Source: Puia sp. (lineage in GTDB: Bacteria > Bacteroidota > Bacteroidia > Chitinophagales > Chitinophagaceae). From it: a DNA stretch of 64,000 bases. Position 1 is the first letter of the stretch; the number at the start of each line of letters is the position of its first letter. Positions 8,261 through 63,093 of this stretch are shown here, piece by piece. The notes below the pieces were generated by a model. The model was not told the DNA's origin. It did not search any database and saw nothing but the letters and a program-made list of their open reading frames with translations. The translations under genes and the position numbers were made by a program. The DNA is taken from contig JARLGZ010000172.1 in NCBI GenBank assembly GCA_031292515.1, positions 310,001-374,000 on the forward strand, given 5' to 3'.

Positions 8261-8299
8261 GCCTGCAAGTCCGGGGAGGAGTCCCCCTTCCTTGCAGGC
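8261..8299 (-). terminator. Hairpin terminator downstream of susD
   Basis: GCCTGCAAG pairs with CTTGCAGGC, with an inner ggggag/ctcccc-like stem. On the minus strand the hairpin is followed by tatttttattg, so it best serves the SusC/SusD operon, about 190 nt after the susD stop. It may also stop transcripts coming from the response regulator on the plus strand. Confidence 0.6.
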
Positions 8300-8401
8300 A
8301 TCGCCAAAACTACTGCTTACGTCCTACTGAAAACTATTGCTCGTCTTTCGATTTATGATCTATCTGATGATTCTACCAACTACTCATCTTTATTCTCCCA
8401 T

Positions 8402-8492
8402 CTCAATTCTCAATTCTCCATTCTCAATTCTCTCATCTCCCATCTCTTCACTACTCATCTTCACTACTCACTACTCACTACTCACCACCACT
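8402..8492. repeat. Heptanucleotide tandem array running into the susD stop codon
   Basis: On the plus strand thirteen consecutive seven-base units can be read: ctcaatt, ctcaatt, ctccatt, ctcaatt, ctctcat, ctcccat, ctcttca, ctactca, tcttcac and then three tactcac and caccact. In the sense direction of susD the proximal part is repeated TAGTGAG, which begins at the stop codon itself. Because seven is not a multiple of three and the unit contains TAG and TGA, stops occur in all three frames. A related array follows pyrG. Confidence 0.85.
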
Positions 8493-10188
8493 ACTGCCCT
8501 CCCCCGAAATCCGGAGCCGCCTTGTCATACCATACTCTTTGCGTACTCAGCGTCTGCAAATCCTGTGCGTTGGGCGTAAATCCTTCTTCAGTCATCGCCG
8601 ACAGCCAATTTTCGCTATTGGGTTGTCCCGGATCGGTTAACCACCAACGACGTGGGATGGTCTCGTTAAACGTCTCTCTGGAATAATAAGAGGAACCGTA
8701 TTTGGGATAACCTGTTCTGCGACAGAAAACAAACCCCTCATTCATGTTCCGGAAGAAATTTAAATATTCCTGTACGTAAATTCTTTCGAGGTCGTTCGTG
8801 CCATTTAGCTGTACCTGGCTATTGCCTAAATAAGCATTGACCGTGGTGGCTCCATCATCGGAAAATGCGGTGGTGCTGACAGCCGCCTGTGCAATACTGT
8901 TCATCGTTTTTATGGAAGAAGTCACTCCTTTCACATACCAATCGTTGGCCGAGCCATTCGTGTTGATGCCGGCACCATAACCCTTTTGGATCAGCTCGGC
9001 CACCATCAGGCAGCTTTCTGCATTTGACACCAATAGTTCGGTATAAGCTCCCACATTGGTCCTGTTATAATTTGGCGCCATAAACCAACGATTGATCGTC
9101 GACAGCAGAAAATACTGCGTGGAACCCACCACAAAAGGGTTGCTGCGAAAAGCCGCCGTTGAAGGGTCCGTGGTAAAATCCGCCGGGCAACCCTGGTACA
9201 TGATCAGGGGATCGTTTGTATTAACAAACGAGGGCGCCGTCACGTTATATTTCGCCAGGGAATCCCCGAACGAAGGGGTGAGGCTGTTGGGGCTGAAATA
9301 AATGCCGATCCGGGGGTCTCCGGATGCCTTCATGAAACCGATAATGGACTTAGTGGCATAGCGGATGGATCTGTAATTGATGTTTCCACCCGGGCCATAA
9401 TAGGTATTGTTGCCTGTCACATAGGCCAGTTGTGCCGCATCGGTGCTGATCGGCCCCGTGGGATCAGTCATAACCTCTTGAAAAATTGTCTTAGTCATGC
9501 CCGGGTTCTGATTCTCCCAACGTACGGCTATTCTAAGCTTCAATGTGTTCGCGAGGTTTATCCATTTTGCCCAATCACTGCCATAGTAAATATCCGCACT
9601 GCCATAACTGTGTTGGGTCGTTCCTGTCGCAGACAAGGTTGCAATAGCGGCATTCAGCTCGCTGATCCACGTATTGAACAATGTCTCCTGTGTGTCATAT
9701 ACAGGATTGAACACACCGGCGGAGCGGCCTTGTTCGGCTTGCGTGTAAGGAATGGAGCCATTCACATCGGTTACCTTAATAGCTTGCAAAATTTGCAGGA
9801 TATAAGTGACCGCAGCCGCATTCGCATAAGAGGCGGAATCCGCCTTCATGCTTATTTGCTGCCTGATCGCCACCAAATTGGGCATAATATTCAGGTAGAA
9901 GGCCGAATACCGGGTGTTCACATTACTGGTAATATCATAAGGATCCGATGCGATGTGCTGCGTGAAACGCCAGAACTGCTCCATGGTTTCATATACATAT
10001 TCATTTTGATTTCCCATATAAGCTGTCAACTGATCCTCCGAATAGGTAAGCAAAAAATCGATATTCGGATTTACGACGACGCTGGGGTCGGTATTAATGG
10101 GGCCAAAATTCTTTTTGCATGATGAAGCCAATCCCATTGTGCCTGCAAGGCCCAACAGCATTAAATATCTCGATATTGCCTTTCTCAT
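8491..10188 (-). CDS. SusD/RagB-family nutrient-binding outer-membrane lipoprotein
   Basis: The 565-residue product has a lipoprotein signal ending in LASSC, with the modified Cys near residue 24, followed by KKNFGPINTDPSVV, a typical start for the SusD-like_2 group. The body is helix-rich with TPR-like content, and the C-terminal region reads IYVQEYLNFFRNMNEGFVFCRRTGYP, which resembles the conserved end of these proteins. SusD proteins act as lids on SusC transporters at the cell surface and bind oligosaccharides or peptides. The gene lies 87 nt downstream of susC on the same strand. Nothing in the locus (no glycosidase or peptidase next to it) identifies the substrate. Confidence 0.93.
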   Translation of the reverse strand: MRKAISRYLMLLGLAGTMGLASSCKKNFGPINTDPSVVVNPNIDFLLTYSEDQLTAYMGNQNEYVYETMEQFWRFTQHIASDPYDITSNVNTRYSAFYLNIMPNLVAIRQQISMKADSASYANAAAVTYILQILQAIKVTDVNGSIPYTQAEQGRSAGVFNPVYDTQETLFNTWISELNAAIATLSATGTTQHSYGSADIYYGSDWAKWINLANTLKLRIAVRWENQNPGMTKTIFQEVMTDPTGPISTDAAQLAYVTGNNTYYGPGGNINYRSIRYATKSIIGFMKASGDPRIGIYFSPNSLTPSFGDSLAKYNVTAPSFVNTNDPLIMYQGCPADFTTDPSTAAFRSNPFVVGSTQYFLLSTINRWFMAPNYNRTNVGAYTELLVSNAESCLMVAELIQKGYGAGINTNGSANDWYVKGVTSSIKTMNSIAQAAVSTTAFSDDGATTVNAYLGNSQVQLNGTNDLERIYVQEYLNFFRNMNEGFVFCRRTGYPKYGSSYYSRETFNETIPRRWWLTDPGQPNSENWLSAMTEEGFTPNAQDLQTLSTQRVWYDKAAPDFGGGQ

Positions 10189-10275
10189 TTGTTTATACTT
10201 TTTTGATAACTGAACTCACATTAATAATACGGAACTCACACTAATGATTGAATGAACCTCATCGTTTTCTATCCG

Positions 10276-14010: not shown

Positions 14011-14093
14011 AAATTCGATGGGTTTTGCAGTTAATAAATAGATGGCAAAATCCTTCCCTTTGAAGTTGTCAGACCACGGGGGGAAGTCTAAAA

Positions 14094-22283: not shown

Positions 22284-22340
22284 AATTACTATTACTATTT
22301 ATAACTATTACTACTATGAATAACTACTCGACTATTTCTT
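22284..22340. repeat. 19-nt degenerate tandem repeat filling the rpsL-rpsG spacer
   Basis: Three units can be aligned on the plus strand: aattactattactatttat, aactattactactatgaat and aactactcgactatttctt. The third contains the rpsL stop codon. In the sense direction the spacer is a run of TAG/TAA-containing units, so readthrough or frameshifted ribosomes would stop at once in any frame. Confidence 0.6.
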
Positions 22341-22742
22341 GCCGCCCTTTGCAGGTGCGCCCTTAGCGCCGGCTTTTTCCTTCTTCGTACCGTATTTGGA
22401 ACGGCTCTTCTTCCGGTCCTTCACACCAGCCGTATCCAGGCTGCCGCGAACGATATGATAACGTACACCCGGTAAGTCTTTTACACGACCTCCGCGGATC
22501 AGCACGATCGAGTGCTCCTGGAGATTATGCCCTTCACCCGGAATATAGGCGATCACCTCTACTTTATTGGTCAGACGCACCTTTGCCACCTTACGCAAAG
22601 CGGAGTTCGGTTTCTTGGGTGTCGTCGTGTACACGCGGGTACAAACACCGCGGCGCTGCGGACAGGCATCCAGGGCCCTCGACTTGCTTTTTGCGCGAAT
22701 AATCTCTCTTCCTTTTCTAACTAATTGCTGTATAGTAGGCAT
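22332..22742 (-). CDS. rpsL: 30S ribosomal protein S12
   Basis: The 136-residue protein contains [19 protein letters not shown], with the Lys associated with streptomycin sensitivity in the KKPNSALRK loop, and [28 protein letters not shown]. The end has an extended basic tail ([17 protein letters not shown]), longer than in E. coli. S12 controls decoding accuracy at the A site. It is the first gene of the str group, with a promoter at 22769-22776. Confidence 0.97.
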
Positions 22743-33289: not shown

Positions 33290-33527
33290 ATCAATTACTT
33301 ACAGATTGTCGCGCAACTATCGCCCTCTTCACACTATCCTTCCCGGTCCCCTGGTTTACTCACATCTTCCCCCACTCACTCCCTTCAACTTACCAAACGC
33401 CCTACTCACCGCTTACTACTCACTACTCTTTCTCACCGGCCTCCCCCTTTAGTCTGTCTGCCCCACTCACTTCCCAACACTCACTCCTCGACATTTTCTG
33501 TCCCCACTCCCCACTCACTACTCACCA

Positions 33528-33529
<2 letters not shown>
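33290..33529. repeat. C/T-rich array with seven-base periodicity after pyrG
   Basis: Next to the pyrG stop, ccccact, ccccact, cactact and caccact follow one another (33502-33529). Further on, ccctact, caccgct, tactact and cactact recur around 33400. On the sense strand this is tgagtagtgag-like and contains the block gtggggacagaaaatg shared with the 33-nt repeat at 30442. This occupies most of the 392-nt gap between pyrG and yidC; I see no gene in it. Confidence 0.7.
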
Positions 33530-35192
<1,663 letters not shown>

Positions 35193-36315: not shown

Positions 36316-36430
36316 CCCCGTCGCCGGAATGCTAAAATGCTAAAGCCAGGATTATCCTGCCTGCACAATCCGGGAACCCGGCTCAGAGGCTGCATAAACA
36401 CATAAACAAAAAAACACATAAGCAAAAAAG

Positions 36431-36984: not shown

Positions 36985-38172
36985 ATGAAAAAAATCATCC
37001 TCGCATCCCTTTGTATTGCGCTGTTATCCAAAGCATTCGCCCGGACGGCCCAGTCGGACCCCGGTCAGCGCACTGCCCTCAGCCATAAAATAGTAGAGAT
37101 AGAATTGCCCAATCCGCAAAGAACGGAGGCCATGCCCGGTCCCTTTAACCATTTCGAGGTGATTGACGCGCGGCCGGATACCTCTTATATCGGAGCGCAT
37201 ACCGAGAACTTATGGGTACCGATGACCCGGATGAGGCAGCTGGTCCTCAAAGGGTCCGTCACGCGGACGATACCGGACTACCTGAACAACCATTTCTCCG
37301 ATCCCGAAGCTCCTTATAAAGTGCTGGTAGTCATTCGCAAACTCTGGATTTCCGACATAGCCTATTCCTACCGGCAGGAGGAACAAAAAGACGAAATCTA
37401 CCAAAAAGATGATAAGATCAATTGCAGGTTCCGGGCCGAAATCTATGTCTCGGGCGGCAACCAGCCGGCGGGTGATAATTCATCCGGCAACAAGTCGCTG
37501 TATACACCCGTGCTCCGTTTCGATTCGCTCCTGGTACTGGACAAAAATGGATATGACCGGATCGGCGGCTTTTTGTCGGACCTGCTGCAAAGCATGGCCG
37601 ACACCCTCGCGACCTTCGATATCGACAGGAAATGGGAGACCGGCAGGCAACTCAGCCTGGCAGATATCAGGCGCTTCAGCAACTCGCTCTACGACTTCCC
37701 CATTTTCAGGGACACCGCACTCGTAAAAGGCGTGTATGCCAGCTTCGACGAATTCCGCAACAACGCGCCTTCCATCCGGGATTTCGAGATCGCCACGGAA
37801 AACAAGAGGTCGCTCCTCTATACAAAAGACCCTTCCGGGAATTCCTTCTACAACCACAAAGCCTGGGGCCTCTGTGACGGCAAGAACCTGTACGTGATGC
37901 TGGAAGGGTTCCTTTTCCCCATTTTCAGGGAACAAAATGCATTTTATCTTTCGGGATTTATAGAAAGCAAGACAAACGCGGAGAATGTCAGGGAGGACAG
38001 GGATGAATACCTGTACGGACCACAGGACGGCGGAGCCACCTGGTTTCCCGGCACGGCCAGCCAAAACAACGCCGTCATTGCCCGGGCCGACTACGCGATA
38101 AAACACAAAAACACGGTAAAAAGAGAGACCCGCGTCTTCCTGGTGGATCCGGACACGGGGGCCATCTATTAG
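36985..38172 (+). CDS. Secreted protein of unknown function ending in a 21-nt repeat
   Basis: The start at 36985 is chosen because a clean signal peptide begins there (MKKIILASLCIALLSKAFA); the frame is open further upstream, but that part is AT-rich and not signal-like. The 395-residue product is soluble-looking after cleavage, with segments NHFEVIDARPDTSYIGAH, KVLVVIRKLWISDIAYSY and RLSLADIRR-like QLSLADIRRFSNSLYDF. I recognise no domain. It ends DTGAIY, and this segment is repeated twice more beyond the stop codon. It stands alone, convergent with proC. Confidence 0.75.
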   Translation: MKKIILASLCIALLSKAFARTAQSDPGQRTALSHKIVEIELPNPQRTEAMPGPFNHFEVIDARPDTSYIGAHTENLWVPMTRMRQLVLKGSVTRTIPDYLNNHFSDPEAPYKVLVVIRKLWISDIAYSYRQEEQKDEIYQKDDKINCRFRAEIYVSGGNQPAGDNSSGNKSLYTPVLRFDSLLVLDKNGYDRIGGFLSDLLQSMADTLATFDIDRKWETGRQLSLADIRRFSNSLYDFPIFRDTALVKGVYASFDEFRNNAPSIRDFEIATENKRSLLYTKDPSGNSFYNHKAWGLCDGKNLYVMLEGFLFPIFREQNAFYLSGFIESKTNAENVREDRDEYLYGPQDGGATWFPGTASQNNAVIARADYAIKHKNTVKRETRVFLVDPDTGAIY

Positions 38173-38214
38173 AACACGGGAGCTATCAATTGGGACACGG
38201 GGGCTATCTGTAAA
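38152..38214. repeat. 21-nt tandem repeat, three units, spanning a stop codon
   Basis: The units begin gacacgggggccatctat, aacacgggagctatcaat and gacacgggggctatctgt at 38152, 38173 and 38194. The first ends with the TAG stop of the gene at 36985. Because 21 is a multiple of three, readthrough would give DTGAIY-stop-NTGAINW-DTGAIC. Confidence 0.85.
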
Positions 38215-48746: not shown

Positions 48747-50015
48747 ATGCATGCCATCCTCTTTTTTATATACTTTGCCTTACTATGCTTACTCATCAAA
48801 AAAATAAAATTCTTCAGGGACAGCGAAATCAGGCTCAGCTGGCTGCTGGTCTTTTTTACCCTGCGGGTGCTGGCATCGTGTATAAATACCTGGCTGGCTG
48901 AAAAATACTTTCCCAACCAACGGGATATCTGGTCTTATTTCAGGGAAGGCCTCGTCATGAAAGGGGATCTGCTCAGAGCCCCCCTCCACTGCTTCAAAAC
49001 CCTGTTACCGCCCTTCAACGAGTTTAGCTTTTTTGACATGCACTCTTCCTGGTATCTGCTCGAGTTCAAGTTCATTTCCGGGATCAATACTTTCTTCGAT
49101 TTCCTCTCCTTTGATAATTTTTACATCAATTCGCTGCTATTCTCCTTCTTTGTCTATTGGGGAAGCATCGCTTTATTCCGCGTCTTCAGGAATATCCTTC
49201 ATAACAATGGCCTGCTCTGCTCGCTGCTGAGCCTGCTGATCCCTTCGACCCTTTTCTGGACTGCCTGTATCAATAAAGAAGGGGTCATCTATATGTCCCT
49301 GGGATTTTTCTCTTACTATCTGCACCGGGCCCTCACGGAACGGCCAAACTGGCGGTTGATAGTCGCCTGTATCCTGTTCCTGGCACTCGGCCTCTTCAGC
49401 AGGCCTTTTCTGATCTTCGGGCTGTTCCCGTTCATCCTCTTTTGGATTGCCGGGGAAAAAATACCGTTCAGCATCCCGGCTGTGGCGGCGCTCACCCTGA
49501 TCGTCATTCTTATCGTCTATTACTTTATCGGAACCTTCTATCCGAATGCCGATCCTTTCCTGATCATCAGCGACCGGCAACAGGATATCCTGGTAATGAG
49601 CGGCCGCTCCAGGATCCATCTCCCCTCGCTTGAACCCAATCCCGGCAGTTTCCTGGCTATACTGCCCACGGCCTTTTTAAATGGCTTTATCGAGCCCTTG
49701 CCGGGCCATGGGGGACACCCCATCTATCTGCTGATGACCCTGGAAATGCTCGCGATCTGGACCATCATCCTGACGGCGGTATCGCGGAAATTCTTCAGGA
49801 CCCCCAAGGTCCGGATGGGGGTCTATGACATCTCCTGCCTGTTCATGGCCATTCCCTGCATTCTCCTGGCCGGCTATTCCACCCCCTTTATAAGTTCTAT
49901 CTCCCGGTACAGAAGCATCTATCTCCCCTTTCTGCTGGTTCCGTTCGTACATACTCTTAGCGGGCTTCCCTTTGTCAGCAAGATCAACAAATCATTAAGC
50001 AAAATAATCGCATAA
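48747..50015 (+). CDS. Polytopic membrane protein of unknown function, paralog 2
   Basis: The 422-residue protein has about ten hydrophobic segments and is the tandem paralog of the preceding gene. Shared conserved points are KFFRDSEIR (FFRDSGVR in the other), PSTLFWTACINKEGVIY (PSALFWASSVYTEGVVY), NGFIEPLPGHGG and SRYRSIYLPFLLVPFVH. The conserved Glu in the KEGV/TEGV segment and the EPLPG loop are candidates for functional residues. Where paralog 1 has the repeat loop, this protein has a short AGEKIPFSIP turn. The lower GC and greater divergence suggest an old duplication. Function unknown. Confidence 0.75.
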   Translation: MHAILFFIYFALLCLLIKKIKFFRDSEIRLSWLLVFFTLRVLASCINTWLAEKYFPNQRDIWSYFREGLVMKGDLLRAPLHCFKTLLPPFNEFSFFDMHSSWYLLEFKFISGINTFFDFLSFDNFYINSLLFSFFVYWGSIALFRVFRNILHNNGLLCSLLSLLIPSTLFWTACINKEGVIYMSLGFFSYYLHRALTERPNWRLIVACILFLALGLFSRPFLIFGLFPFILFWIAGEKIPFSIPAVAALTLIVILIVYYFIGTFYPNADPFLIISDRQQDILVMSGRSRIHLPSLEPNPGSFLAILPTAFLNGFIEPLPGHGGHPIYLLMTLEMLAIWTIILTAVSRKFFRTPKVRMGVYDISCLFMAIPCILLAGYSTPFISSISRYRSIYLPFLLVPFVHTLSGLPFVSKINKSLSKIIA

Positions 50016-50030
50016 ATCATTCGCATAAAT
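50008..50030. repeat. 13-nt duplication across a stop codon
   Basis: tcgcataaat occurs at 50008 and again at 50021. The first copy contains the last codons and the TAA stop of the gene at 48747. The remaining 50031-50265 stretch is AT-rich, with no gene seen. Confidence 0.5.
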
Positions 50031-50313: not shown

Positions 50314-52506
50314 ATGTCATCATTAAGATTAAAAGCTATAGACAACCTAACCACTGCCCCTGAGGAGAAACTGGTAGGATCCCAAAAGATCACTGCCATA
50401 TTCGGTGAAAATGTTTTCACGCTGAAAACCGCCCGTGAGTTCCTGAGCGATGAAGCCTACAAAAGCCTGGCGGCTTCTGTAAAGGGCGGGAAAAAGATCG
50501 ATCGCAGCCAGGCCAACCAGATTGCTGCTGGTTTGCGTCATTGGGCCGAGGCAAAAGGTGTCACCCATTTTACACATTGGTTCCAGCCGCTGACCGGGAC
50601 CACCGCCGAAAAACATGATTCTTTCTTTACGCTGAAAAGCGATGGCACTGCAATAGAAGAGTTTGACGGAGCCGCCCTGATCCAACAGGAGCCCGATGCC
50701 TCTTCCTTCCCCAGCGGCGGTCTTCGCGCCACTTTCGAAGCCCGTGGATATACCGCCTGGGATCCTTCCTCCCCTGCTTTCGTCATGGAGATCGGCGCCG
50801 GCAGGACCCTGTGCATCCCCACTATTTTCGTTTCCTATACCGGTGAATCCCTGGACTATAAAGCGCCCCTGTTGAAAGCGCTCGCCGCCCTGGACAAAGC
50901 CGCCGTCGAAGTCTGTCATTATTTCGACAAAAATGTCACCAAAGTGACCCCGACTCTGGGATGGGAACAGGAGTATTTCATCGTCGACGAAGGCCTGTTC
51001 AACGCCCGTCCCGACCTGGTGTTGAGCGGAAGGACCGTCTTCGGTCATTCTCCCGCCAAAGGCCAGCAGCTCGAAGATCATTATTTCGGCAGCATCCCCG
51101 AAAGAGTCTATGCTTTCATGAGGGACTACGAAAACGAAGCCTATAAACTGGGTATCCCCCTGCGTACGCGTCACAACGAGGTAGCGCCCGCACAGTTCGA
51201 GTGCGCTCCTATCTTCGAAGAAGTCAGCGTAGCCGTGGATCACAATATCTTGCTGATGGATATCATGGATCGTGTTGCCCGCCGCCACAAACTGCGCGTA
51301 CTTCTACATGAAAAACCCTTCGCCGGCATCAACGGTAGCGGGAAGCACAACAACTGGAGCATGGCTACCGACACTGGTGTCAACCTCCTGGCTCCCGGCA
51401 AGACCCCGAAGACCAACCTGATGTTCCTGACCTTCTTCGTCAACACCATCAAGGCGGTACACGATTATTCCGACGTATTGAGAGCTTCTATCGCCTCTGC
51501 CGGCAATGACTTCCGTCTCGGCGCCAACGAAGCGCCTCCTGCCATCATCTCCGTTTTCATCGGCGAGTACCTGAGCAAGGTCCTGGCAGACGTAAAAGAG
51601 CGCGTTGGCGATAAATTCGACGAGCAGGACGAAGCGATCCTGAAGCTGGATCTGCACCGCAGCATCCCTGAACTGCTGCTGGACAACACCGACCGCAACC
51701 GTACTTCTCCTTTCGCCTTCACCGGTAATAAATTCGAGTTCCGCGCCGTAGGCAGCAACGCCAACTGTGCCAACGCGATGATCGCCCTCAACACCATCAT
51801 GGCCGAGACCCTGAAGAAATTCAAGAAAGAAGTCGATGCACTGATCGAAAAAGGCGACAAAAAAGAAATCGCCATCATGCATGTTATCCGCGAATCCATC
51901 GTCGGCAGCGAAAAAGTGCTGTTCGAAGGCGACGGCTATAGCGACGAATGGCACCATGAAGCCGAAAGACGCGGTCTGCCGAACGTCCGCACCACCCCGC
52001 TGGCGCTGGATGCCGTCGTAACCGACAAAGCCAAGCACCTCTTCGAATCGAACGGTGTCTACACCCATGTCGAACTGGAAGCCCGTCATGAGATCGAGCT
52101 GGAGAAATACATCAAGAGAGTTCAGATAGAAGCCCGCATCATGGGTGAGCTGGCCACCAGCCACATCCTGCCCGCGGCCATCAAGTATCAGAACATCCTG
52201 ATCGAAAATATCAAGGGGCTCAAGGAGATCGGTCTGAAAGACAGTGCCTATGCCAACCAGAAGGCGATCCTTGAGAAGATCTCCGAACACATCAGCAAAG
52301 TCAGCGGCCTGGTGGAAAAGATGATCGAAGCCCGCAAGATCGCCAACGCGATCAGCGACACCCGTACGAAGGCCATCGCCTACGAGAGCCAGGTGAAGGA
52401 ACCTTTCTTCGACCCGATCCGCTACAGCGTAGACAAGCTGGAGCTGCTGGTAGACGACAACCAATGGGTGCTGTCGAAGTACAGGGAACTGCTGTTCCTG
52501 CGCTAG
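50314..52506 (+). CDS. glnN: Glutamine synthetase type III
   Basis: The start at 50314 (MSSLRLKAIDNLTT) gives 730 residues, the GSIII length; the frame is open to 50203 but would include the likely promoter. The GSIII features are WFQPLTGTTAEKHDSFF, PTLGWEQEYFIVDEGLF (metal-binding Glu), GIPLRTRHNEVAPAQFE and EKPFAGINGSGKHNNWSM, the ATP and glutamate sites. The long C-terminal helical region (about 560-730) is typical of this dodecameric type. It makes glutamine from glutamate and ammonia. Codon use is strongly biased toward C/G-ending codons, consistent with high expression. A terminator follows. Confidence 0.96.
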   Translation: MSSLRLKAIDNLTTAPEEKLVGSQKITAIFGENVFTLKTAREFLSDEAYKSLAASVKGGKKIDRSQANQIAAGLRHWAEAKGVTHFTHWFQPLTGTTAEKHDSFFTLKSDGTAIEEFDGAALIQQEPDASSFPSGGLRATFEARGYTAWDPSSPAFVMEIGAGRTLCIPTIFVSYTGESLDYKAPLLKALAALDKAAVEVCHYFDKNVTKVTPTLGWEQEYFIVDEGLFNARPDLVLSGRTVFGHSPAKGQQLEDHYFGSIPERVYAFMRDYENEAYKLGIPLRTRHNEVAPAQFECAPIFEEVSVAVDHNILLMDIMDRVARRHKLRVLLHEKPFAGINGSGKHNNWSMATDTGVNLLAPGKTPKTNLMFLTFFVNTIKAVHDYSDVLRASIASAGNDFRLGANEAPPAIISVFIGEYLSKVLADVKERVGDKFDEQDEAILKLDLHRSIPELLLDNTDRNRTSPFAFTGNKFEFRAVGSNANCANAMIALNTIMAETLKKFKKEVDALIEKGDKKEIAIMHVIRESIVGSEKVLFEGDGYSDEWHHEAERRGLPNVRTTPLALDAVVTDKAKHLFESNGVYTHVELEARHEIELEKYIKRVQIEARIMGELATSHILPAAIKYQNILIENIKGLKEIGLKDSAYANQKAILEKISEHISKVSGLVEKMIEARKIANAISDTRTKAIAYESQVKEPFFDPIRYSVDKLELLVDDNQWVLSKYRELLFLR

Positions 52507-52530
52507 TGTAGTCAGTAGTAGTGAGTGCTT
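52507..52530. repeat. Heptad-like TAGTGAG sequence after glnN
   Basis: The stop TAG is followed by tgtagtcagtagtagtgagtg, here cited as tagtcagtag and tagtgag. This is a short version of the arrays after susD, pyrG and the GLPGLI-like gene, in the same orientation relative to the gene. Confidence 0.55.
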
Positions 52531-53817: not shown

Positions 53818-56178
53818 ATGACAAAAAAGACAGGCACTACTATGACACTCCTTAAAATGACACTCTCTAAGCCCCTCTTTGTAAAGAGGTCCCCCACCTC
53901 AAAGACATCTCCGGCAAAAATCTGCACCCCGAAAATATTTCACACACGCCCGCTCGCATGGATTCTCTTCTGGATGCCAGCTCTTTTCGCCTCGCTCCCA
54001 GCGGGATCCGTCCTGGCACAAGCATCTTCTCAGGCATCGTCGCAGACGCCGCTGCCTGTCTATAAAGAGCGTACGGCCACCGGCGACACACCCGACTGGC
54101 TGCTCGATGCCAGCAGCTTTAAAGCAGGCGTCTACAAGAGCCCGGACGGCAAAGATATCATCCTGGACAATGGCTTGTCCCGCAGGGTGTTCCGGGTCAG
54201 CCCCAACCTCGCCTGCATCGACTATAAAAACCTCCGATCGGGTCAGCAATTGCTGCGCGCCGTCTCCCCCGAGGCCCGTGTGACTATTGGAGGCACTACC
54301 TATAATATAGGAGGCCTCTATGGCCAGCAGGAGAAAGCCTATCTCTTGACGAACTGGGTAGACGGGTACACCGCTCACGACAGCGATTTTGTATTTCGTT
54401 CGTATACCGTGTCTCCGGTAAAACCCTTTATCGCCTATAAACAATCGGGCTGGTCCGGCAATGACAAGCCGCCAACCGGCAAAACCCTGTCTTTGGTCTT
54501 TGGCTCGAAGCTCGAAGCCTTGAAAGATATCGCCGTCACCGTCAACTATGAACTGTATGACGGGCTGCCCCTGATCGTAAAATGGGTGGGCGTAGAGAAT
54601 CACTCCGCAAAGGCCATCGTCATCGACCGGATGGTCAGCGAGACACTCGCCGTCGTGGAAGAGGAGAGCGCCGTAGTGGGTACGCCGGAGCAGATGAAGA
54701 AGCAGCACGGCATCTACATAGAAACAAACTACGCCTTCAACAATTCGATGCGCTACGACCTGAGCGACCAGACGACGCATTGGCTGACGGATCGAAGCTA
54801 TACTTCCCAGGTCAACTATGACTATACCACCCCCTGCGTACTGGAGGTTTATCCAGGCAAAGTCACTTCGATAGAAGTGGCCCCGGGCGAAACATTCCGT
54901 TCCGTGCGTACGCATGAGTTGCTGATGGATAGCTATGACCGGGAGAGAAGGGGCATGGCCATCCGGAAGATGTATTGGACGATAGCACCCTGGACCAACG
55001 AGAACCCCATCTTTATGCATCTCGTCAGCAAAGACGACGAACAGGTCCGTACAGCCATCGCGCAATGTCTCGCGACCGGCTATGAGGCGCTGATACTGAG
55101 CTTTGGAAGCCATTGCAACATAGAGGATACTTCGGCCGCCAATATCCGGAAGTGGAGGGAACTCGCGGACCTGGCACATGCCCGTGGATTGAAGATCGGC
55201 GGCTATTCCCTGTTCAGTTCCCGCCGCATCAGCGACGAAGACGACGTGATAGACCCCGTGACGGGCAAACCCGACAAGGCCGCCCTGTTTGGCGCCGCCC
55301 CCTGTCTCGGAAGCAATTGGGGACTTAGCTATATCGCGAAACTGAAGTACTTCTTCACAGCCACCGGCTTCGACATCTTCGAAAACGACGGGCCTTACCC
55401 CGGCGATGTCTGCGCCTCCACCACCCATCCCGGCCACAAGGGCCTGGGCGACTCGCAATGGCGGCAGATGGAGTTGCAGAAGGAGATGTATCACTGGTGC
55501 AGCGAGCATGGCATCTATATAAATGCGCCGGATTGGTATTTCCTCGACGGGACCAACAAGATCGCGCTTGGCTATCGCGAGGTGAACTTCTCGCTGTCGC
55601 GCGACCAGCAGAAGATCCTGAACCGTCAGAATATCTTCGACGGCACCTGGGAGAAGGGGTCTTCCATGAGCTGGGGTTTTGTGCCCCTCACCCACTACCA
55701 GGGCGGAGGCGAAGACGCGATCCTGGAGCCACTTTCGGAGCATCTGAAAGATTACGAACAGCTGATGGTACAATATTATGGCGCCGGCGTGCAGGCCTGC
55801 TACCGCGGACCTCGCCTCTACGATACGGAAGAGACGCGGCAACTGGTAAGCAAGACCATCTCCTGGTATAAGGAATACCGCTACATCCTCAATGCCCCGC
55901 TGATCCATCTCCGTCGCGCCGACGGCCGCGACTGGGACGGCTGGCTGCATGTGGACCCTACCTTGAAGAACCGGGGCATGGCGCTGCTCTATAACCCGTT
56001 AAAGGAGGCCATCACCCGCACGATCACCTTGCCGGTCTATTATACCGGGATCACCACGACCGCTACCGTACGGGAGAAGGAAGGCGCTCCCCGCTCTTAT
56101 AAGGTCAGCAGGGATTATGAGATCCGGGTGCCGGTGACAATCCCCGCGGGATCTTTTACCTGGCTTGTGATAGAATGA
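53818..56178 (+). CDS. Putative secreted glycoside hydrolase, alpha-galactosidase-like
   Basis: The product is about 786 residues from this start; the frame is open to 53728 and several ATGs are possible (53788, 53818, 53842, 53857). The export signal is WILFWMPALFASLPAGSVLAQ, preceded by an unusually long basic N-region made of 15-nt repeats. A beta-sandwich part (about 90-330) precedes a TIM-barrel-like part with ALILSFGSHCNIEDT, ARGLKIGGYSLFSSRR and TGFDIFENDGPYPGD, reminiscent of clan GH-D alpha-galactosidase-type enzymes in which an Asp on strand 4 is the nucleophile. The C-terminal beta domain contains LYNPLKEAITRTITLPVYY. Substrate not known; the family call is tentative. It is divergent from cmk. 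Confidence 0.72.
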   Translation: MTKKTGTTMTLLKMTLSKPLFVKRSPTSKTSPAKICTPKIFHTRPLAWILFWMPALFASLPAGSVLAQASSQASSQTPLPVYKERTATGDTPDWLLDASSFKAGVYKSPDGKDIILDNGLSRRVFRVSPNLACIDYKNLRSGQQLLRAVSPEARVTIGGTTYNIGGLYGQQEKAYLLTNWVDGYTAHDSDFVFRSYTVSPVKPFIAYKQSGWSGNDKPPTGKTLSLVFGSKLEALKDIAVTVNYELYDGLPLIVKWVGVENHSAKAIVIDRMVSETLAVVEEESAVVGTPEQMKKQHGIYIETNYAFNNSMRYDLSDQTTHWLTDRSYTSQVNYDYTTPCVLEVYPGKVTSIEVAPGETFRSVRTHELLMDSYDRERRGMAIRKMYWTIAPWTNENPIFMHLVSKDDEQVRTAIAQCLATGYEALILSFGSHCNIEDTSAANIRKWRELADLAHARGLKIGGYSLFSSRRISDEDDVIDPVTGKPDKAALFGAAPCLGSNWGLSYIAKLKYFFTATGFDIFENDGPYPGDVCASTTHPGHKGLGDSQWRQMELQKEMYHWCSEHGIYINAPDWYFLDGTNKIALGYREVNFSLSRDQQKILNRQNIFDGTWEKGSSMSWGFVPLTHYQGGGEDAILEPLSEHLKDYEQLMVQYYGAGVQACYRGPRLYDTEETRQLVSKTISWYKEYRYILNAPLIHLRRADGRDWDGWLHVDPTLKNRGMALLYNPLKEAITRTITLPVYYTGITTTATVREKEGAPRSYKVSRDYEIRVPVTIPAGSFTWLVIE
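53842..53946 (+). repeat. 15-nt in-frame array in the glycosidase N-terminus, seven units
   Basis: Units are atgacactccttaaa, atgacactctctaag, cccctctttgtaaag, aggtcccccacctca, aagacatctccggca, aaaatctgcaccccg and aaaatatttcacaca, encoding MTLLK, MTLSK, PLFVK, RSPTS, KTSPA, KICTP and KIFHT. A possible start codon is itself duplicated by the first two units. Confidence 0.65.
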
Positions 56179-56193
56179 CTCGTGACAGAATAA
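56164..56193. repeat. 15-nt duplication across the glycosidase stop codon
   Basis: cttgtgatagaatga, the last four codons plus the stop, is followed directly by ctcgtgacagaataa, which would encode LVTE and another stop in the same frame. Confidence 0.75.
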
Positions 56194-56206
56194 AAGAGTA
56201 AACTGC

Positions 56207-56260: not shown

Positions 56261-56265
56261 CGCGT

Positions 56266-56834: not shown

Positions 56835-56909
56835 TTGCTATTGAATACTTCTTTTGCTATAGAACACTTGTTGCTATTCAAGACTTGAATTGTTATACAA
56901 TCCCTGTCC
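56835..56909. repeat. 17-19-nt tandem repeat around the clpC stop codon, four units
   Basis: On the plus strand ttgctattgaatacttctt, ttgctatagaacacttg, ttgctattcaagacttgaa and ttgttatacaatcc start at 56835, 56854, 56871 and 56890. In the clpC sense direction each unit has a stop triplet before CAA: TAA (the real stop), TAG, TAG and TAG. Confidence 0.8.
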
Positions 56910-59439
56910 CGGGTGCTTCGGATTTCTCCGTAGCTTCCTGTTCCTTCAGCGAGAACCGGATCCTGGAGTTTTCCTTGTCCAGGTCGGCGATCAGGATATC
57001 CCCGTTCTTGATATTCATGTTCAGGATCTCTTCTGCAAGGGGATCTTCCAGGTATTTCTGGATGGCCCTGTGCAGGGGACGTGCGCCGAACTGCTGATCG
57101 TAACCCTTGTCTGCGATAAAGCTCTTGGCTTCTTCGGTCAGCTCGAGGGCGAAGCCCAGGTTGCTCAGGCGTTTCAGCACGCCCTTCATCAGGATATCGA
57201 TGATCTGGAAGATATGCTCCTTGTTGAGGGAGTTGAAGATCACGATATCGTCGATCCTGTTCAGGAATTCGGGGCTAAAGGTCCTCTTCAGCGCTTTCTC
57301 GATGACGGCTTTGTTGTTTTCGTCAGCGTTCTGCGTCCTGGAGGCGGTGGCGAAACCGACGCCGTCCCCGAAGTCCTTCAACTGCCGGACCCCGATATTG
57401 GAAGTCATGATGATCAGTGTGTTCTTGAAATCCACTTTCCTGCCGAGACCATCCGTCAACTGGCCGTCGTCGAGCACCTGCAACAGGATGTTATAGATAT
57501 CCGGGTGTGCCTTTTCGATTTCGTCCAGGAGGATCACGGAGTAAGGTTTCCTTCTCACCCTTTCCGTCAGCTGGCCGCCTTCTTCATAGCCTACATATCC
57601 CGGAGGGGCGCCGATGAGACGGCTCACCGTGAACTTCTCCATGTATTCGCTCATGTCTATGCGGATCAGCGAATCTTCCGAGTCGAACATATAACGCGAG
57701 AGCGCACGTGCCAGCTCCGTCTTGCCTACGCCTGTAGGGCCCAGGAAGATAAAGGTGCCGATCGGCTTCTTTGGATCTTTCAGGCCGACGCGGTTACGCT
57801 GGATGGCTTTCACCACTTTCTGGATCGCATCATCCTGGCCGACCACCATCCCGCGCATGCCTACCGACATGTTGCGGAGCTTCTCGCTTTCCGCCTGCAC
57901 CATGCGTTTGACGGGAATCCCCGTCATCATGCTGACGACTTCGGCGATATTGTCTTCATCGATGGGATAGCGTTTGTGTTTGCTTTCTTCCTCCCATTCG
58001 TTCTTTGCCTTCTCGAGTTCTTCCTGCAGACGTTTTTCCGTGTCGCGGAGAGAAGCGGCTTCTTCGAACTTCTGGCTCTTGACCACTTTGTTCTTTTCGT
58101 TCTTCACGTCTTCTATCTTCTTCTCCAGTTCCACGATGTTCTGCGGCACGTTGATATTCTTCAGGTGGACGCGGGCGCCTACCTCGTCGAGTACGTCGAT
58201 GGCTTTGTCGGGCAGCAGGCGGTCCGTCATATAACGGTCGCTGAGCTTTACGCAGGCTTCGATCGCGTCGTCGGAATACGTGACGTTGTGATAATCCTCA
58301 TATTTGGATTTGATATTGATCAGGATCTGGATGGTCTCATCCACGCTGGGCGGATCTACCATTACCTTCTGGAAGCGGCGGTCCAGGGCTCCGTCCTTCT
58401 CGATATACATCCTGTATTCATCGAGGGTGGAGGCGCCGATGCACTGCAGTTCGCCACGTGCCAGGGCAGGTTTGAATATATTGGAAGCATCGAGCGATCC
58501 GCTGGCGCCACCTGCTCCGACGATCGTATGGATCTCGTCGATGAACAGTATCACGTCACGGTTCTTTTCGAGCTCGTTCATGATTGCTTTCATGCGCTCT
58601 TCAAACTGGCCACGGTATTTGGTACCGGCCACCAGGGCGGCGAGGTCCAGTGAGATGACGCGTTTGTCGAAGAGCACGCGGGATACCTTCCTTTGAACAA
58701 TGCGCAGGGCCAGACCTTCCACGATGGCAGTCTTACCCACGCCGGGTTCTCCGATCAGGATCGGGTTGTTCTTCTTGCGGCGGGAAAGGATCTGCGAGAC
58801 CCTTTCGATCTCTTCTTCCCGGCCTACGATCGGGTCGAGTGCGCCCATCTCGGCAAGGCGGGTGATATCCCTGCCGAAGTTATCCAGGACCGGCGTCTTG
58901 CTTTTCGCGGTACCGGCGGCCCGGGCCTTCTGCTGGGAGTATTTTTTCTCTTCGTCGAAATCGTCGTCATTTTCTTCGGCGTATTCGCTCCGGATGTCAT
59001 TGCTTTTCACGACACCCAGTTCATTGCGGAAAAGATCGTAGTCCACGTCAAACTGATTTAAGATTTGAGTCGCAATATTTTCTTTGTTCTTCAGGATCGA
59101 GAGCATTAGGTGTTCAGTCTCAACTGTCGGGCTCTTCAAGGCTTTCGCTTCCAATACGGTCACGCGGATCACCTTTTCTGCCTGTTTGGTCAATGGAAGG
59201 CTATTGATATTAGCGATGTTCTTACCGGTTTTGTCCTTGACTGCCATCTCCACTTCTTTCCGCAATTCATAAAGGTCTACATTGAAACTCTTTAAGATGC
59301 GAACCGCGGTGTTATCCCCCTCACGGATCAGACCCAGCAACAAGTGCTCCGTACCGATAAAATCATTCCCCAGACGCAACGCTTCCTCCCTACTGAAAGA
59401 TATAATCTCCTTTACCTGGGCTGAAAAATTATTATCCAT
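56893..59439 (-). CDS. clpC: ATP-dependent Clp protease ATP-binding subunit ClpC
   Basis: The start at 59439 ([36 protein letters not shown] is cited in part as [13 protein letters not shown]) gives 848 residues. The two N-terminal Clp repeats are followed by AAA domain 1 ([28 protein letters not shown]), a middle coiled-coil with a UVR-like segment ([19 protein letters not shown]) and AAA domain 2 ([29 protein letters not shown]). This is the ClpC type that unfolds substrates for ClpP. No ctsR or mcsAB is present. The longer frame to 59499 runs through the promoter region. It is divergent from the STAS gene, with a perfect palindrome between. Confidence 0.96.
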
Positions 59440-59501
59440 TTTTAAGTTATTGAGCTTTATACAATAATAACGAATATTTTTGACTTTTGGTTTACCCATT
59501 A

Positions 59502-59515: not shown

Positions 59516-59531
59516 CAATCTTTAAGTGTAT

Positions 59532-59909: not shown

Positions 59910-60080
59910 CGCACTCCTCCCCGCAGCATCTCGTGCAACGTTTTTGGAAGCTTACCTCGGCCTTTCGCAACCCACCACAACTTTTCGCGGTCCTGCCCGC
60001 AGCATTGGCAGTAATTGACCAGGATCAACTAACTTCGGGTATCTTAATCGGCTATCTGAACGAGTTTACCTGGACACAAA

Positions 60081-60170
60081 CGACCAAACCGGGCAAACCG
60101 GCCCAACTGAGCAAACCGACCCAATCGGCAGCATTGGCCCAATTGGCCCAGCCCGCCCGATCGGCCAGAC
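60081..60170. repeat. 9-nt tandem array, ten degenerate units
   Basis: Units from 60081 are cgaccaaac, cgggcaaac, cggcccaac, tgagcaaac, cgacccaat, cggcagcat, tggcccaat, tggcccagc, ccgcccgat and cggccagac. An open frame of 100 codons passes through, but it has no recognisable start context and its sequence is just the repeat, so I do not call a gene. Confidence 0.75.
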
Positions 60171-60269
60171 GTGCTGACCCCGACCGGGCAATATCCCTTG
60201 AATATCCAGCAATAGCAATCGTTATTCGACTGTGAATCCCATACACCCGGCAAAAAGGCCCAATCCAAT

Positions 60270-60459
60270 TACCTAATCAGGCTTACCCATCAAACCAGCC
60301 GATCAAACCGCCTGATCAGACCACTTGATCAGACCAACTGATCCCACTTGATCAAGCCACCTGACGACACTATTTGATCAAACTATTTAATCAGGCTACC
60401 CGATCAAACGATCGGTCAGATTACCGGCCAGGCTACCCGATCCGCCACCCGGTCAAAAT
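60270..60459. repeat. 13-nt tandem array with TGATCA core, about 15 units
   Basis: Examples are tacctaatcaggc, cagccgatcaaac, cgcctgatcagac, cacttgatcagac, tatttgatcaaac, tatttaatcaggc and tacccgatcaaac; a few units are 11 or 12 nt. The core tgatca/cgatca recurs with 13-base spacing. It fills most of the 672-nt gap between the STAS and kinase genes; the last stretch (60460-60580) has weaker aatg/caat-rich repeats and no gene. Confidence 0.85.
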
Positions 60460-60581
60460 GCAATATCCACCAAGTTTACCCGGTAACTCATTGATTCAAT
60501 GGCCAGTGCAAACAATGATGGGTGCCAAACAACGATCGGAGCAATACGTAATACAATGATCAGTTCAATGCAAAGACACAT

Positions 60582-61760: not shown

Positions 61761-61885
61761 AACCTGCCCCTCTTTTCAGCGAATCACTTGAACCGTTTCG
61801 GCTTTTTTGCTTAATTTTCAGTGAAATGCAGCAGATTTGCGTTGCCTGTCGTCTTTACCCGTATCGTAACCTTTAAAATCGAATA

Positions 61886-63028
61886 ATGCTGGCCGTCACC
61901 ATATTAGGCAATAACTCTGCTCTTCCCGCTTTTGATCGTCATCCGACAGCCCAGGTGGTCACGATGGACGATCATGTCTTCCTGGTCGATTGTGGCGAAG
62001 GCACCCAGATGCAGATGTCGCGGTACAAGATCCGTCGCAGCAAGATCAATCATATCTTCATCTCTCACCTGCATGGGGATCATTACTTCGGGCTCATCGG
62101 GCTTATTACGAGCATGGGGCTGCTGGGCCGTACGCTGGACCTGAACCTTTATGCCAGTCCCGCCCTCGAAGACATCATCAACCTGCAATTGCGGGTGGCG
62201 GATATACAACTTCCATTCAAACTTCATTTTCATCCCCTGGTGGCGCAAGGCGTCATCCTCAAAGAAGCCAAACTCGAGGTACTCTGCTTTCCCGTCTATC
62301 ATCGCATCGAATGCTGGGGTTTCCGTTTCCAGGAGATCCGGCCTGTGCGGCGTGTCAATCCCGAAAAAGCCAGGATCCTCGGCGTACCTTCTTCTTTCTT
62401 CGAGCGCCTGAAATGGGGGGAAGACTATATCACCAAAGAGGGGAACACCATCCTCAATGCCGATGCCACCGACCCCGGTACACCCGCAAAATCCTATGCC
62501 TACGCCGCCGACACCGCCTATGACGAAAGGCTGATCGAGTGCGTACGAGGTGTAGACTTATTATACCACGAAACGACCTATCTCAAGGACCTGGAAGCCC
62601 GGGCAATCAATCGTTTTCACAGCACCACCACCCAGGCCGCCACCATCGCCAAACGCGCCGGCGTACGACACCTGCTGATCGGTCATTTCAGCTCCAAATA
62701 CGAGAAACTGGACGATTTCGAGGTGCAGGCCCGTGAGCTGTTCCCCAATACGGATCTGGCGCTGGAGGGCGTCACCTATCGGGCCGGAGGGCCTGCGAGT
62801 GCAGCGACGACTCCCACAGAACCGGCGACGCCTCCCCTGTCGAATACGGCGACGACATCTTCCGCAGATACGCGAGCCGCCGCACCAAAAGCCGGTACAG
62901 CAAAGGACGCTGCTCCGAAAAAGGCTGCAGAAAGAGATACCGCAGCAAAAGGCGCTGCGTCAAAAGATGGTGCTCCGAAAGACGGTGTATCAAAGGAAAC
63001 GCCGAAAGCATCTTCGGAAGGCGCGTAG
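61886..63028 (+). CDS. rnz: Ribonuclease Z with repeat tail
   Basis: The 380-residue protein has the metallo-beta-lactamase core of RNase Z: VTILGNNSALPAFDRHPTAQV, FLVDCGEGTQMQM, the metal motif FISHLHGDHYFGLIGL (HxHxDH), YAADTAYDERL and HLLIGHFSSKYE. The core ends at about residue 295, the usual length. The last 80 residues are low-complexity, Ala/Lys/Thr/Pro-rich, and encoded in large part by a 15-nt array, so the tail is an expansion with no family counterpart. The enzyme makes the 3' end of tRNA precursors. Confidence 0.95.
   Translation: MLAVTILGNNSALPAFDRHPTAQVVTMDDHVFLVDCGEGTQMQMSRYKIRRSKINHIFISHLHGDHYFGLIGLITSMGLLGRTLDLNLYASPALEDIINLQLRVADIQLPFKLHFHPLVAQGVILKEAKLEVLCFPVYHRIECWGFRFQEIRPVRRVNPEKARILGVPSSFFERLKWGEDYITKEGNTILNADATDPGTPAKSYAYAADTAYDERLIECVRGVDLLYHETTYLKDLEARAINRFHSTTTQAATIAKRAGVRHLLIGHFSSKYEKLDDFEVQARELFPNTDLALEGVTYRAGGPASAATTPTEPATPPLSNTATTSSADTRAAAPKAGTAKDAAPKKAAERDTAAKGAASKDGAPKDGVSKETPKASSEGA
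62887..63006 (+). repeat. 15-nt in-frame array in the rnz tail, eight units
   Basis: Units are aaaagccggtacagc, aaaggacgctgctcc, gaaaaaggctgcaga, aagagataccgcagc, aaaaggcgctgcgtc, aaaagatggtgctcc, gaaagacggtgtatc and aaaggaaacgccgaa, encoding KAGTA, KDAAP, KKAAE, RDTAA, KGAAS, KDGAP, KDGVS and KETPK. Confidence 0.9.
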
Positions 63029-63049
63029 CCAGCAAGACAATATTACCTT

Positions 63050-63093
63050 CTGATTTTCTTCTGATTCCCTGCTGATTTTCTCCTGATTTTGCC
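63050..63093. repeat. 11-nt tandem repeat, four units, after rnz
   Basis: ctgattttctt, ctgattccctg, ctgattttctc and ctgattttgcc are contiguous. They start 21 nt after the rnz stop codon and occupy the space before the convergent dapA. Confidence 0.85.

What the first reader, a model, noticed from the sequence alone, without database searches (positions are those of the whole stretch)
8261..63093. Window-wide pattern: degenerate tandem repeats at gene 3' ends, often copying the stop codon
At many gene ends the last few codons or the stop itself are the first unit of a short tandem array running into the 3' flank: susD (7 nt), GLPGLI-like gene (33 nt, three in-frame stops), clpC (17-19 nt, four stops), glycosidase (15 nt, two stops), the gene at 36985 (21 nt), the TPR gene (22 nt), the gene at 48747 (13 nt), and rpsL (19 nt). 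Unit length and sequence differ from gene to gene, so this is not one mobile repeat but a repeated process. Two ideas: local slippage duplication tolerated just past genes, or selection for back-up stop codons that limit readthrough and ribosome run-on. I do not know of a published description.
Basis: partly seen in the sequence, partly recalled or inferred. Interest (0 to 1): 0.85.

Follow-up and report, generated by a model that had tools for sequence, protein, structure and literature searches.

The report
Stop-codon-anchored repeats at gene ends
Many genes in this soil Bacteroidota genome end in short repeated DNA that starts at the stop codon; most of it looks like harmless copying slips, but one seven-letter repeat sits at gene ends with a strict position and direction that back-up stop signals do not explain.

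Summary
In 1.194 Mb of the window's own genome (Puia-like, Chitinophagaceae) a tandem array covers the stop codon at 74 of 878 gene ends; with intergenic DNA shuffled, 3 of 878. Class B arrays are gene-specific. They behave like tolerated slippage: unit length is not biased to multiples of 3, copies of the stop decay like other triplets (30 of 76 kept against 484 of 1215), and left edges are only mildly enriched at stops. Class A is one dispersed heptamer family, T[A/G]GT[C/G][A/G]G: 38 of 47 intergenic arrays start at a stop, in sense (random placement: mean 5.6). Units are purest next to the stop, and in clearly skewed contigs arrays lie on the G-skew (leading) strand (30 of 30; check set 18 of 22). 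The family occurs in 1 of 32 congeners, yet recurs, stop-anchored in 10 of 18 arrays, in Mucilaginibacter sp. OK283, where the strand rule does not clearly hold. Back-up stops are not supported: in-frame stops are not favoured and some arrays lack stops. The closest published case, G-rich heptamers of Xanthomonas and Nostoc, follows nearly the same position rule. How one heptamer reached dozens of gene ends is unexplained.

The parts
8392..8495 (-). Array starting at the TAG stop of the susD-like gene (8491-10188, minus): TAGTGAG-type heptamers grading into GAGAATT-type units; formally counted as class B
   Evidence: TRF rows; sequence; period-7 row; class B row; 1 of 400 shuffles reaches the best score
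30445..30542 (-). 33-nt array built of the heptamer family (class A); three units each with an in-frame stop; DUF4412/GLPGLI-like gene (30535-31218, minus)
   Evidence: TRF score 154; sequence; class A; 0 of 400 shuffles
33504..33529 (-). Heptamer array beginning in the TAG stop of pyrG (33528-35177, minus); further degenerate heptamers at 33402-33428; below the class A score threshold
   Evidence: TRF score 38; congeners end at or near the same codon without this array; the score alone is not significant (42 of 400 shuffles)
52504..52525 (+). Short degenerate heptamer run (TAGTGTAGTCAGTAGTAGTGAG) at the stop of glutamine synthetase III (50314-52506, plus); a lagging-strand gene, so against the strand trend
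   Evidence: Sequence; no TRF row at the stop, so below threshold
22293..22337 (-). Degenerate 19-nt/6-nt array over the TAG stop of rpsL (22332-22742, minus)
   Evidence: TRF score 53; 10 of 400 shuffles
38153..38209 (+). 21-nt array, 2.7 copies, spanning the TAG stop of the gene at 36985-38172; later copies lose the stop
   Evidence: TRF score 79; 0 of 400 shuffles; sequence
49989..50030 (+). 13-nt array, 3.3 copies, spanning the TAA stop of the gene at 48747-50015
   Evidence: TRF score 47; 3 of 400 shuffles
56854..56900 (-). 17-nt degenerate array over the TAA stop of clpC (56893-59499, minus); weak
   Evidence: TRF score 48 on the + strand, none in gene orientation
56167..56196 (+).
   Evidence: No TRF row; 26 of 400 shuffles reach score 20; no Pfam match at E 1e-5
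63042..63090 (+). 22-nt array in the 3' flank of the metallo-beta-lactamase-fold gene 61886-63028 (reader: TPR); starts about 13 nt after the stop
   Evidence: TRF score 73; 0 of 400 shuffles; Pfam
36393..36429 (+).
   Evidence: TRF score 61; 0 of 400 shuffles; sequence; Pfam

Best explanation
Two overlapping phenomena. (1) Gene-specific arrays (class B) are ordinary slippage duplications in non-coding DNA. Past a stop they are tolerated, because a duplication that takes in the last codons leaves the protein unchanged. (Shown: statistics. Inferred: slippage as the event.) (2) The heptamer arrays (class A) are a lineage-specific burst of heptameric simple-sequence repeats of the kind known from Xanthomonas and Nostoc. 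Seen along the G-rich strand, an array tends to begin at the 5' edge of the intergenic region: on the stop codon of a co-directional gene, or some tens of nt short of the start of an oppositely read gene. (Shown.) I infer that these arrays arise and grow by replication slippage mainly when the G-rich strand is the lagging-strand template. New units would be added at the gene-side end, where the lagging polymerase leaves the array, and older units decay distally. Coding constraint stops them at the stop codon, which becomes part of the first unit. They are not selected as back-up stops. How one heptamer sequence came to sit at dozens of gene ends is not explained by slippage alone.
For: Class B: no 3n bias (13 of 47 against 83 of 94 in genes); stop copies decay like any triplet (30 of 76 against 484 of 1215); left edges about 1.5x denser at -15..-1 than at 0..+59; no strand bias (20 of 32 against 223 of 353 available). 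Class A: of 47 intergenic arrays 40 are sense to the upstream (or, between convergent genes, the nearer) gene; 38 of 47 start within -18..+13 of the stop against a mean of 5.6 and maximum of 15 in 2000 random placements. Check set: 18 of 18 sense arrays lie at -15..+11 and 10 of 10 antisense arrays >=28 nt away; 6 more of the 34 had no assignable end. Stop-associated arrays lie on leading genes 22 of 22 and 14 of 15, against 223 of 353 and 98 of 143 available ends (pooled Fisher p 6e-6). Purity falls from 0.81 perfect units per 7 nt at the stop to 0.06 at 70 nt, with a degenerate tail. Orthologs in congeners mostly end at or near the same codon without this array.
Against: Pure local slippage does not explain why one heptamer consensus sits at dozens of unrelated loci and again in Mucilaginibacter sp. 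OK283 (184 matches; 0 in the 7 other genomes of that call). Some arrays share a following GATGAAGA-like motif (6 of 35 against 2 of 446; picked after seeing the data), which suggests copying of a longer piece. The strand rule was first noticed in the data and is not universal. In OK283 three convergent gene pairs carry arrays on both strands, and 8 of its 18 arrays seen are not stop-anchored in sense. Contig C137, with weak skew, has 7 on + and 13 on -. Rehm et al. report no leading/lagging preference in Xanthomonas. Leading strand is inferred from GC skew in a draft assembly with 3.2% estimated contamination. The purity gradient could also reflect varied array lengths or purifying selection on the first units.
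Confidence: 0.45

Rival explanations
1. Transcription-coupled expansion: past the stop codon the RNA is free of ribosomes, a G-rich sense transcript forms an R-loop, and the exposed non-template strand slips. Arrays head-on to replication are purged, which gives the leading-strand bias.
For: Sense orientation and start where translation ends; 43% G and 6.5% C in the first 60 nt of class A flanks against about 23% and 22% in other tandem flanks; leading-strand genes in skewed contigs; at three convergent pairs in OK283 each gene has its own sense array.
Against: Antisense heptamer arrays nearer the next start than the stop (5 of 5 tandem cases; 8 of 10 by arithmetic on its rows) are not explained. 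In congener G006 A-rich GTAAAAA units are anchored in the same way.
Confidence: 0.2
2. A selected 3'-UTR or polar DNA element: binding site for a protein, G-quadruplex, transcript end or mRNA protector.
For: Tight position and orientation. In congener G006 a different heptamer forms palindromes shortly past stops that fold strongly (10 of 12 with z < -2). Class A flanks here also fold somewhat better than others (16 of 35 against 15 of 80 with z < -2). Rehm et al. find transcripts starting or stopping more often at G-quadruplex-forming repeats than at control repeats.
Against: This array is absent at the orthologous gene ends examined in congeners. Only 5 of 35 class A ends have an antisense partner, so few hairpins of the G006 type. 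Single heptamers in coding DNA show ordinary strand skew, so it is not a KOPS/Chi-like motif. Dependence on replication strand is not expected of an RNA element.
Confidence: 0.15
3. A dispersed or transferable element: array plus flank is copied from locus to locus (gene conversion, a mobile factor), and the heptamer moved between Puia and Mucilaginibacter lineages.
For: Same four unit variants in this genome and in Mucilaginibacter sp. OK283, absent from most relatives (13 of 118 genomes with any match, this one included; 1 of 8). A GATGAAGA-like motif follows some arrays (6 of 35 against 2 of 446). MacGregor 2015 inferred horizontal transfer for TAACTGA heptamers (abstract and passages).
Against: The intergenic k-mer survey (top 60 words shown) is dominated by the heptamer and A/T runs, with no longer conserved element in sight. 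Y1/REP-type transposase has a single match in the own genome. Register with each gene's own stop is hard for a plain insertion.
Confidence: 0.12
4. Back-up stop codons selected against readthrough or frameshift.
For: Heptamers such as TAGTGAG put stops in all three frames; 15 of 35 class A ends have a stop as the next codon.
Against: In-frame stops are not commoner than in other frames. Stop triplets in class B copies are not conserved. The stopless unit TGGTCAG is seen 18 times against about 22 expected (my calculation from the counts), and pure stopless (TGGTCAG)n arrays follow stops at two gene ends in OK283. Xanthomonas GGGAATC, which has no stop, obeys nearly the same rule (PMC4692102). 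PMC6764699 finds no such selection in bacteria.
Confidence: 0.03

Closest known systems
GGGAATC / GGGGA(C/T)T heptameric repeats of Xanthomonas and Nostoc (Rehm et al. 2015, PMC4692102; abstract, sections 13, 15, 16 and passages read)
   Same: 7-nt unit, degenerate, dispersed, intergenic, G-rich. Preferred between aligned ORFs and under-represented between divergent ones. Sense strand close to or overlapping the stop, antisense strand just upstream of starts; usually nearer the 5' neighbouring ORF.
   Different: Unit is T[A/G]GT[C/G][A/G]G, whose commonest forms carry stop codons and whose consensus lacks GGG. In 24 of 35 ends the stop is in register with the units. On the G-skew strand in this genome, whereas Rehm et al. 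found no leading/lagging preference in Xanthomonas. Different phylum.
TAACTGA heptamer direct repeats of marine Beggiatoaceae, Cyanobacteria and a few Bacteroidetes (MacGregor 2015, PMC4679880; abstract and passages read)
   Same: Stop-containing heptamers, patchy distribution across distant lineages, some overlapping stops of upstream genes (13 cases reported in BOGUAY).
   Different: In BOGUAY mostly just upstream of start codons; different sequence; no stop anchoring as the main rule.
Tandem repeats of archaeal Borg elements (PMC9879509; passages read)
   Same: Rapidly evolving, independently arising arrays; units in ORFs divisible by three while most intergenic ones are not; [quoted passage not shown]
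   Different: Perfect, A-rich units on extrachromosomal elements; about half lie in ORFs; no shared heptamer or stop register reported in the passages read.
Tandemly repeated heptanucleotides of the cyanobacterium Calothrix (known to me here only from the introduction of PMC4692102)
   Same: Heptanucleotide tandem repeats.
   Different: Sequences and position relative to stops not checked here.

Membership tests
Bacterial heptameric simple-sequence repeats (Xanthomonas/Nostoc type) | Unit of 7 nt, tandem, dispersed at many intergenic loci | tested here: met
   50 class A arrays in 1.194 Mb, 47 intergenic; 297 genome-wide matches of the 3-unit pattern
Bacterial heptameric simple-sequence repeats (Xanthomonas/Nostoc type) | Sense near stop, antisense upstream of starts, rare between divergent genes | tested here: met
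   40 sense, 6 antisense, 1 divergent of 47; check set 18 sense and 10 antisense of 34, 6 unassigned
Bacterial heptameric simple-sequence repeats (Xanthomonas/Nostoc type) | GGG tracts in the consensus unit, as needed for quadruplexes | tested here: not met
   Commonest units TAGTGAG, TGGTGAG, TAGTCAG, TGGTCAG lack GGG; minor variants such as GAGTGGG have it. The four-unit preference was not tested.
Bacterial heptameric simple-sequence repeats (Xanthomonas/Nostoc type) | No leading/lagging preference (as reported for Xanthomonas) | tested here: not met
TAACTGA repeats (MacGregor) | TAACTGA unit, mostly just upstream of start codons | tested here: not met
   Unit is TRGTSRG; class A covers 0 of 874 start codons and 29 of 878 stop codons
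Fail-safe additional stop codons | In-frame stops enriched over other frames downstream | tested here: not met
   Non-array ends 294, 299, 297 of 6756; class A 64, 77, 59 of 420; class B 42, 33, 41 of 564
Polar motifs such as KOPS or Chi | Single copies strongly skewed to the leading strand, also in coding DNA (criterion recalled) | tested here: not met
   TAGTGAG 13 against 8, TGGTGAG 33 against 23 in coding DNA; ordinary percentiles (0.49, 0.35) among comparable 7-mers
REP/palindromic elements with Y1 transposase | Conserved palindrome plus RAYT-type transposase | tested here: inconclusive
   5 of 35 class A ends have an antisense partner, against 49 of 843 other ends; one Y1_Tnp match in the own genome, 2, 2, 2, 0 and 1 in five congeners
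Neutral slippage duplications (class B) | No frame bias, no conservation of stop copies, no strand bias | tested here: met

The most novel reading that the evidence does not exclude
An unknown agent or process starts heptamer arrays at stop codons. The unit is the stop codon plus four nucleotides (TAG+TGAG, TGA+GTRG; in a congener TAA+AAAG and TGA+TGGT). Arrays keep the gene's own direction, prefer one replication strand in this genome, and the trait is gained and lost as a whole, possibly by transfer between distant Bacteroidota such as Puia and Mucilaginibacter.
Probability: 0.12. Interest if true: 0.85.

Novelty: new variant of a known kind. Interest (0 to 1): 0.55.

Why it matters
Heptameric repeats in bacteria still lack an established mechanism (Rehm et al. 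2015 close on that note). Here they mostly begin on stop codons, are polar, purest at the gene side and tied to replication strand in one genome, yet anchored in a similar way with other sequences in relatives. This makes competing explanations (replication slippage, R-loops, selected 3'-UTR element, transferable factor) separable by strain comparison and simple genetics. It also argues against reading stop-rich arrays as back-up stops.

Tried and rejected
Back-up stop selection: rejected on frame, conservation, stopless-array and strand tests.

Genes running on into pre-existing arrays: mostly rejected. For class A, 8 of the 10 genes tried, plus pyrG, gave usable orthologs in G002, G007 or G014 (pyrG in 16 congeners); most end within a few codons of the ancestral end. 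C137:311917 ends about 8-12 codons earlier and C137:288108 about 5 later; C148:47289 had no ortholog locus and C148:182805 only a weak one. For class B, 9 of 10 gave orthologs; clpC ends 6 codons later here. Some congener flanks hold other short repeats, such as CAAGCTN units after rpsL in G002.

Hairpins as the common structure: seen for the GGTTGAT elements of congener G006, not for most arrays here (5 of 35 with antisense partner; fold z below -2 in 16 of 35 class A, 2 of 34 class B, 15 of 80 other ends, 10 of 12 G006 heptamer ends).

KOPS/Chi-like polar motif: rejected.

Mismatch-repair or SbcD loss as cause of the burst: mutS over the cut-off in 6 of 6 genomes and sbcD over the cut-off here, though missing or weak in 4 of 5 congeners, so no lead. 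Y1 transposase: one match.

Does the burst exist elsewhere? Stop covered 2 of 139 (G002), 2 of 154 (G007), 3 of 87 in the 12 closest named loci (shuffled 2 of 87); G006 11 of 206, but its stretches were chosen for holding arrays. The check set was likewise chosen because it holds TAGTGAGTAGTGAG, so its array density is not a fair estimate; its position and strand counts are the test. Class B still holds a few heptamer arrays that failed my density rule (susD among them), which slightly blurs the class contrast.

No strain-level comparison was possible (one genome per species).

Literature: eight answered searches (one search found nothing) led to Rehm 2015, MacGregor 2015, Ho & Hurst 2019 and the Borg paper; no title or abstract start listed there describes stop-anchored heptamers in Chitinophagaceae or Mucilaginibacter. 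Only open-licence papers are held.

Full report
What was examined. The window is G000:C28:310001-374000 of a 7.34 Mb draft genome. Relatives found with a conserved protein include Puia dinghuensis at 85% identity, and most congeners with a full-length pyrG match share 86-91% identity, so the genome is Puia-like (Chitinophagaceae). I fetched 1.194 Mb of it, called 881 genes with a dicodon ORF caller of my own, and ran Tandem Repeats Finder (TRF) with intergenic dinucleotide shuffles as control. Gene ends are first in-frame stops, so they do not depend on the caller's start choice.

The observation. At score >=40 there are 349 merged arrays. The stop codon is inside an array at 74 of 878 ends (shuffled 3 of 878), the start codon at 11 of 874 (shuffled 1). 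Array coverage rises from about 1% at 30-60 nt inside the gene to about 14% at 20-60 nt past the stop. It is far lower upstream of divergent starts (10 of 282 ends against 84 of 373 tandem and 35 of 180 convergent 3' ends).

Two classes. Class A is arrays made of the heptamer T[A/G]GT[C/G][A/G]G by a density rule: 50 arrays, 47 of them intergenic. Class B is everything else: 299 arrays, of which 94 lie inside genes. Class A coverage is 6.0% within 50 nt of stops, 0.4% within 50 nt of starts and 0.3% deeper than 100 nt. Class B is 9.1%, 4.3% and 3.3%. Class B is thus only moderately concentrated at 3' ends, whereas class A is sharply so. In the window only the DUF4412 array passes the class A rule; susD (class B by the rule), pyrG and glutamine synthetase III (both below the score threshold) show the heptamer by eye.

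Class B looks neutral. Stop-spanning class B periods are 13, 15 and 19 of 47 in the three residues mod 3, while arrays inside genes are 83 of 94 multiples of 3. Copies of the stop are identical in 30 of 76 cases and another stop in 5; other triplets are identical in 484 of 1215. In-frame stops downstream are not enriched. Left edges at -15..-1 are about 1.5 times as dense as further downstream. Stop-associated class B arrays lie on leading-strand genes 20 of 32 times, as available.

Class A is anchored and oriented. Of 47 intergenic arrays 40 are sense to the upstream (between convergent genes, the nearer) gene, 6 antisense and 1 divergent. 38 of 47 start within -18..+13 of a stop in sense; random placement in the same intergenic regions gives mean 5.6, maximum 15. 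Among 35 stop-associated arrays the stop is TAG in 22 and TGA in 13, never TAA (genome 277, 268 and 336), and in 24 of 35 the first full unit follows in register at +4 or +1 (counted). In a check set of 20 further loci (chosen for holding TAGTGAGTAGTGAG) 18 of 18 sense arrays lie at -15..+11 and 10 of 10 antisense arrays are >=28 nt away; 6 of 34 arrays had no assignable gene end. Perfect units fall from 0.81 per 7 nt at the stop to 0.06 at 70 nt, while one-mismatch units stay at 0.11-0.23 per 7 nt out to about 160 nt, against 0.02-0.05 at other ends.

Replication strand. In contigs with clear GC skew the class A arrays have their G-rich strand on the G-skew strand: C28 11 of 11, C148 15 of 15, C211 4 of 4; C137, with weak negative skew, has 7 on + and 13 on -. 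Stop-associated arrays lie on leading genes 22 of 22 against 223 of 353 available ends; check set 14 of 15 against 98 of 143, p 0.069 by itself; pooled 36 of 37 against 321 of 496, p 6e-6. Single heptamers in coding DNA are not unusually skewed. The short run at the plus-strand glutamine synthetase gene in the window is an exception.

Relatives. The 3-unit pattern occurs 297 times here, in 13 of 118 genomes searched including this one, and in 1 of 32 congeners (two matches). Orthologous gene ends in congeners mostly end at or near the same codon without this array. Congener G006 carries other heptamers, GGTTGAT and GTAAAAA, many sense and close to stops; of 14 sense GGTTGAT-type arrays 10 start 4-15 nt past the stop, and several form palindromes around a TGCGAATTCGCA-like core. 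Mucilaginibacter sp. OK283 (family Sphingobacteriaceae, recalled) has 184 matches of the same pattern while the 7 other genomes of that call have none. In eleven stretches of it, ten chosen for holding arrays, 10 of 18 arrays start at -20..-1 of stops in sense, including both sides of three convergent pairs and two stopless (TGGTCAG)n arrays; the other 8 are antisense, upstream, divergent, in a gene or far away. So stop anchoring recurs, but the replication-strand rule does not clearly extend to that genome.

Known work. Rehm et al. 2015 report that G-rich heptamers in Xanthomonas and Nostoc lie near or over stops on the sense strand, upstream of starts on the antisense strand, and are under-represented between divergent genes; in Xanthomonas they saw no leading/lagging preference. 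That is nearly the same positional rule with a different, stopless unit. MacGregor 2015 describes TAACTGA heptamers with patchy distribution. Ho and Hurst 2019 find no selection for additional stops in bacteria. The polymerase-footprint idea for heptamers is known to me only as cited by Rehm et al..

Reading. Class B is tolerated slippage. Class A is a new variant of the known heptameric repeats. I favour lagging-template slippage with growth at the gene-side end, at 0.45, because it accounts for strand, polarity and gradient together. It does not explain why one sequence is shared by dozens of loci and by OK283, nor the both-strand arrays at convergent pairs there; those facts favour a transcription-linked or transferable process. 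Limits: a draft genome, replichores inferred from skew, my own gene calls, TRF thresholds, no strains and no transcripts.

I corrected the class of the susD and pyrG arrays, replaced 'always in register' by 24 of 35, gave 10 of 18 for OK283 with the misses, added the shuffled control, and mended two coordinates in the parts list.

Noticed in passing
G006 stretches L128-L141 (same genus), shortly past stops: Palindromic elements (GGTTGAT)n - core like TGCGAATTCGCA - (ATCAACC)n, apparently a dispersed hairpin family that can fill the gap between convergent genes; a second heptamer, GTAAAAA, also begins at stops.
   Followed up: partly
Ends of contigs C143 and C198 of the own genome, C106 of G048, C20 of G015, C15 and C16 of G124: Long perfect heptamer arrays lie at or near contig ends, so assemblies seem to break in them and the longest arrays are probably undercounted.
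   Followed up: no
window 60289-60393 and the intergenic region 59910-60581: A long non-coding stretch full of degenerate GATCAAACCACCT-type tandem units (periods 13, 23, 26), well away from the nearest stop.
   Followed up: no
window 1284-1364: About thirteen copies of CCAGAA just upstream of the gene at 1409/1451.
   Followed up: no
own genome C28:112054, 196013, 197804: Genes with near-identical C-termini (RAADYAV.ELKKGN-L/I) carry different arrays after the same stop position, so the arrays seem to have arisen after the gene copies diverged.
   Followed up: partly
own genome, several class A loci such as the 3' flank of C137:311917-315456 (+): A GATGAAGA-like motif follows the heptamer array in 6 of 35 class A ends against 2 of 446 others (post hoc), a hint that more than the heptamer is copied.
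   Followed up: partly
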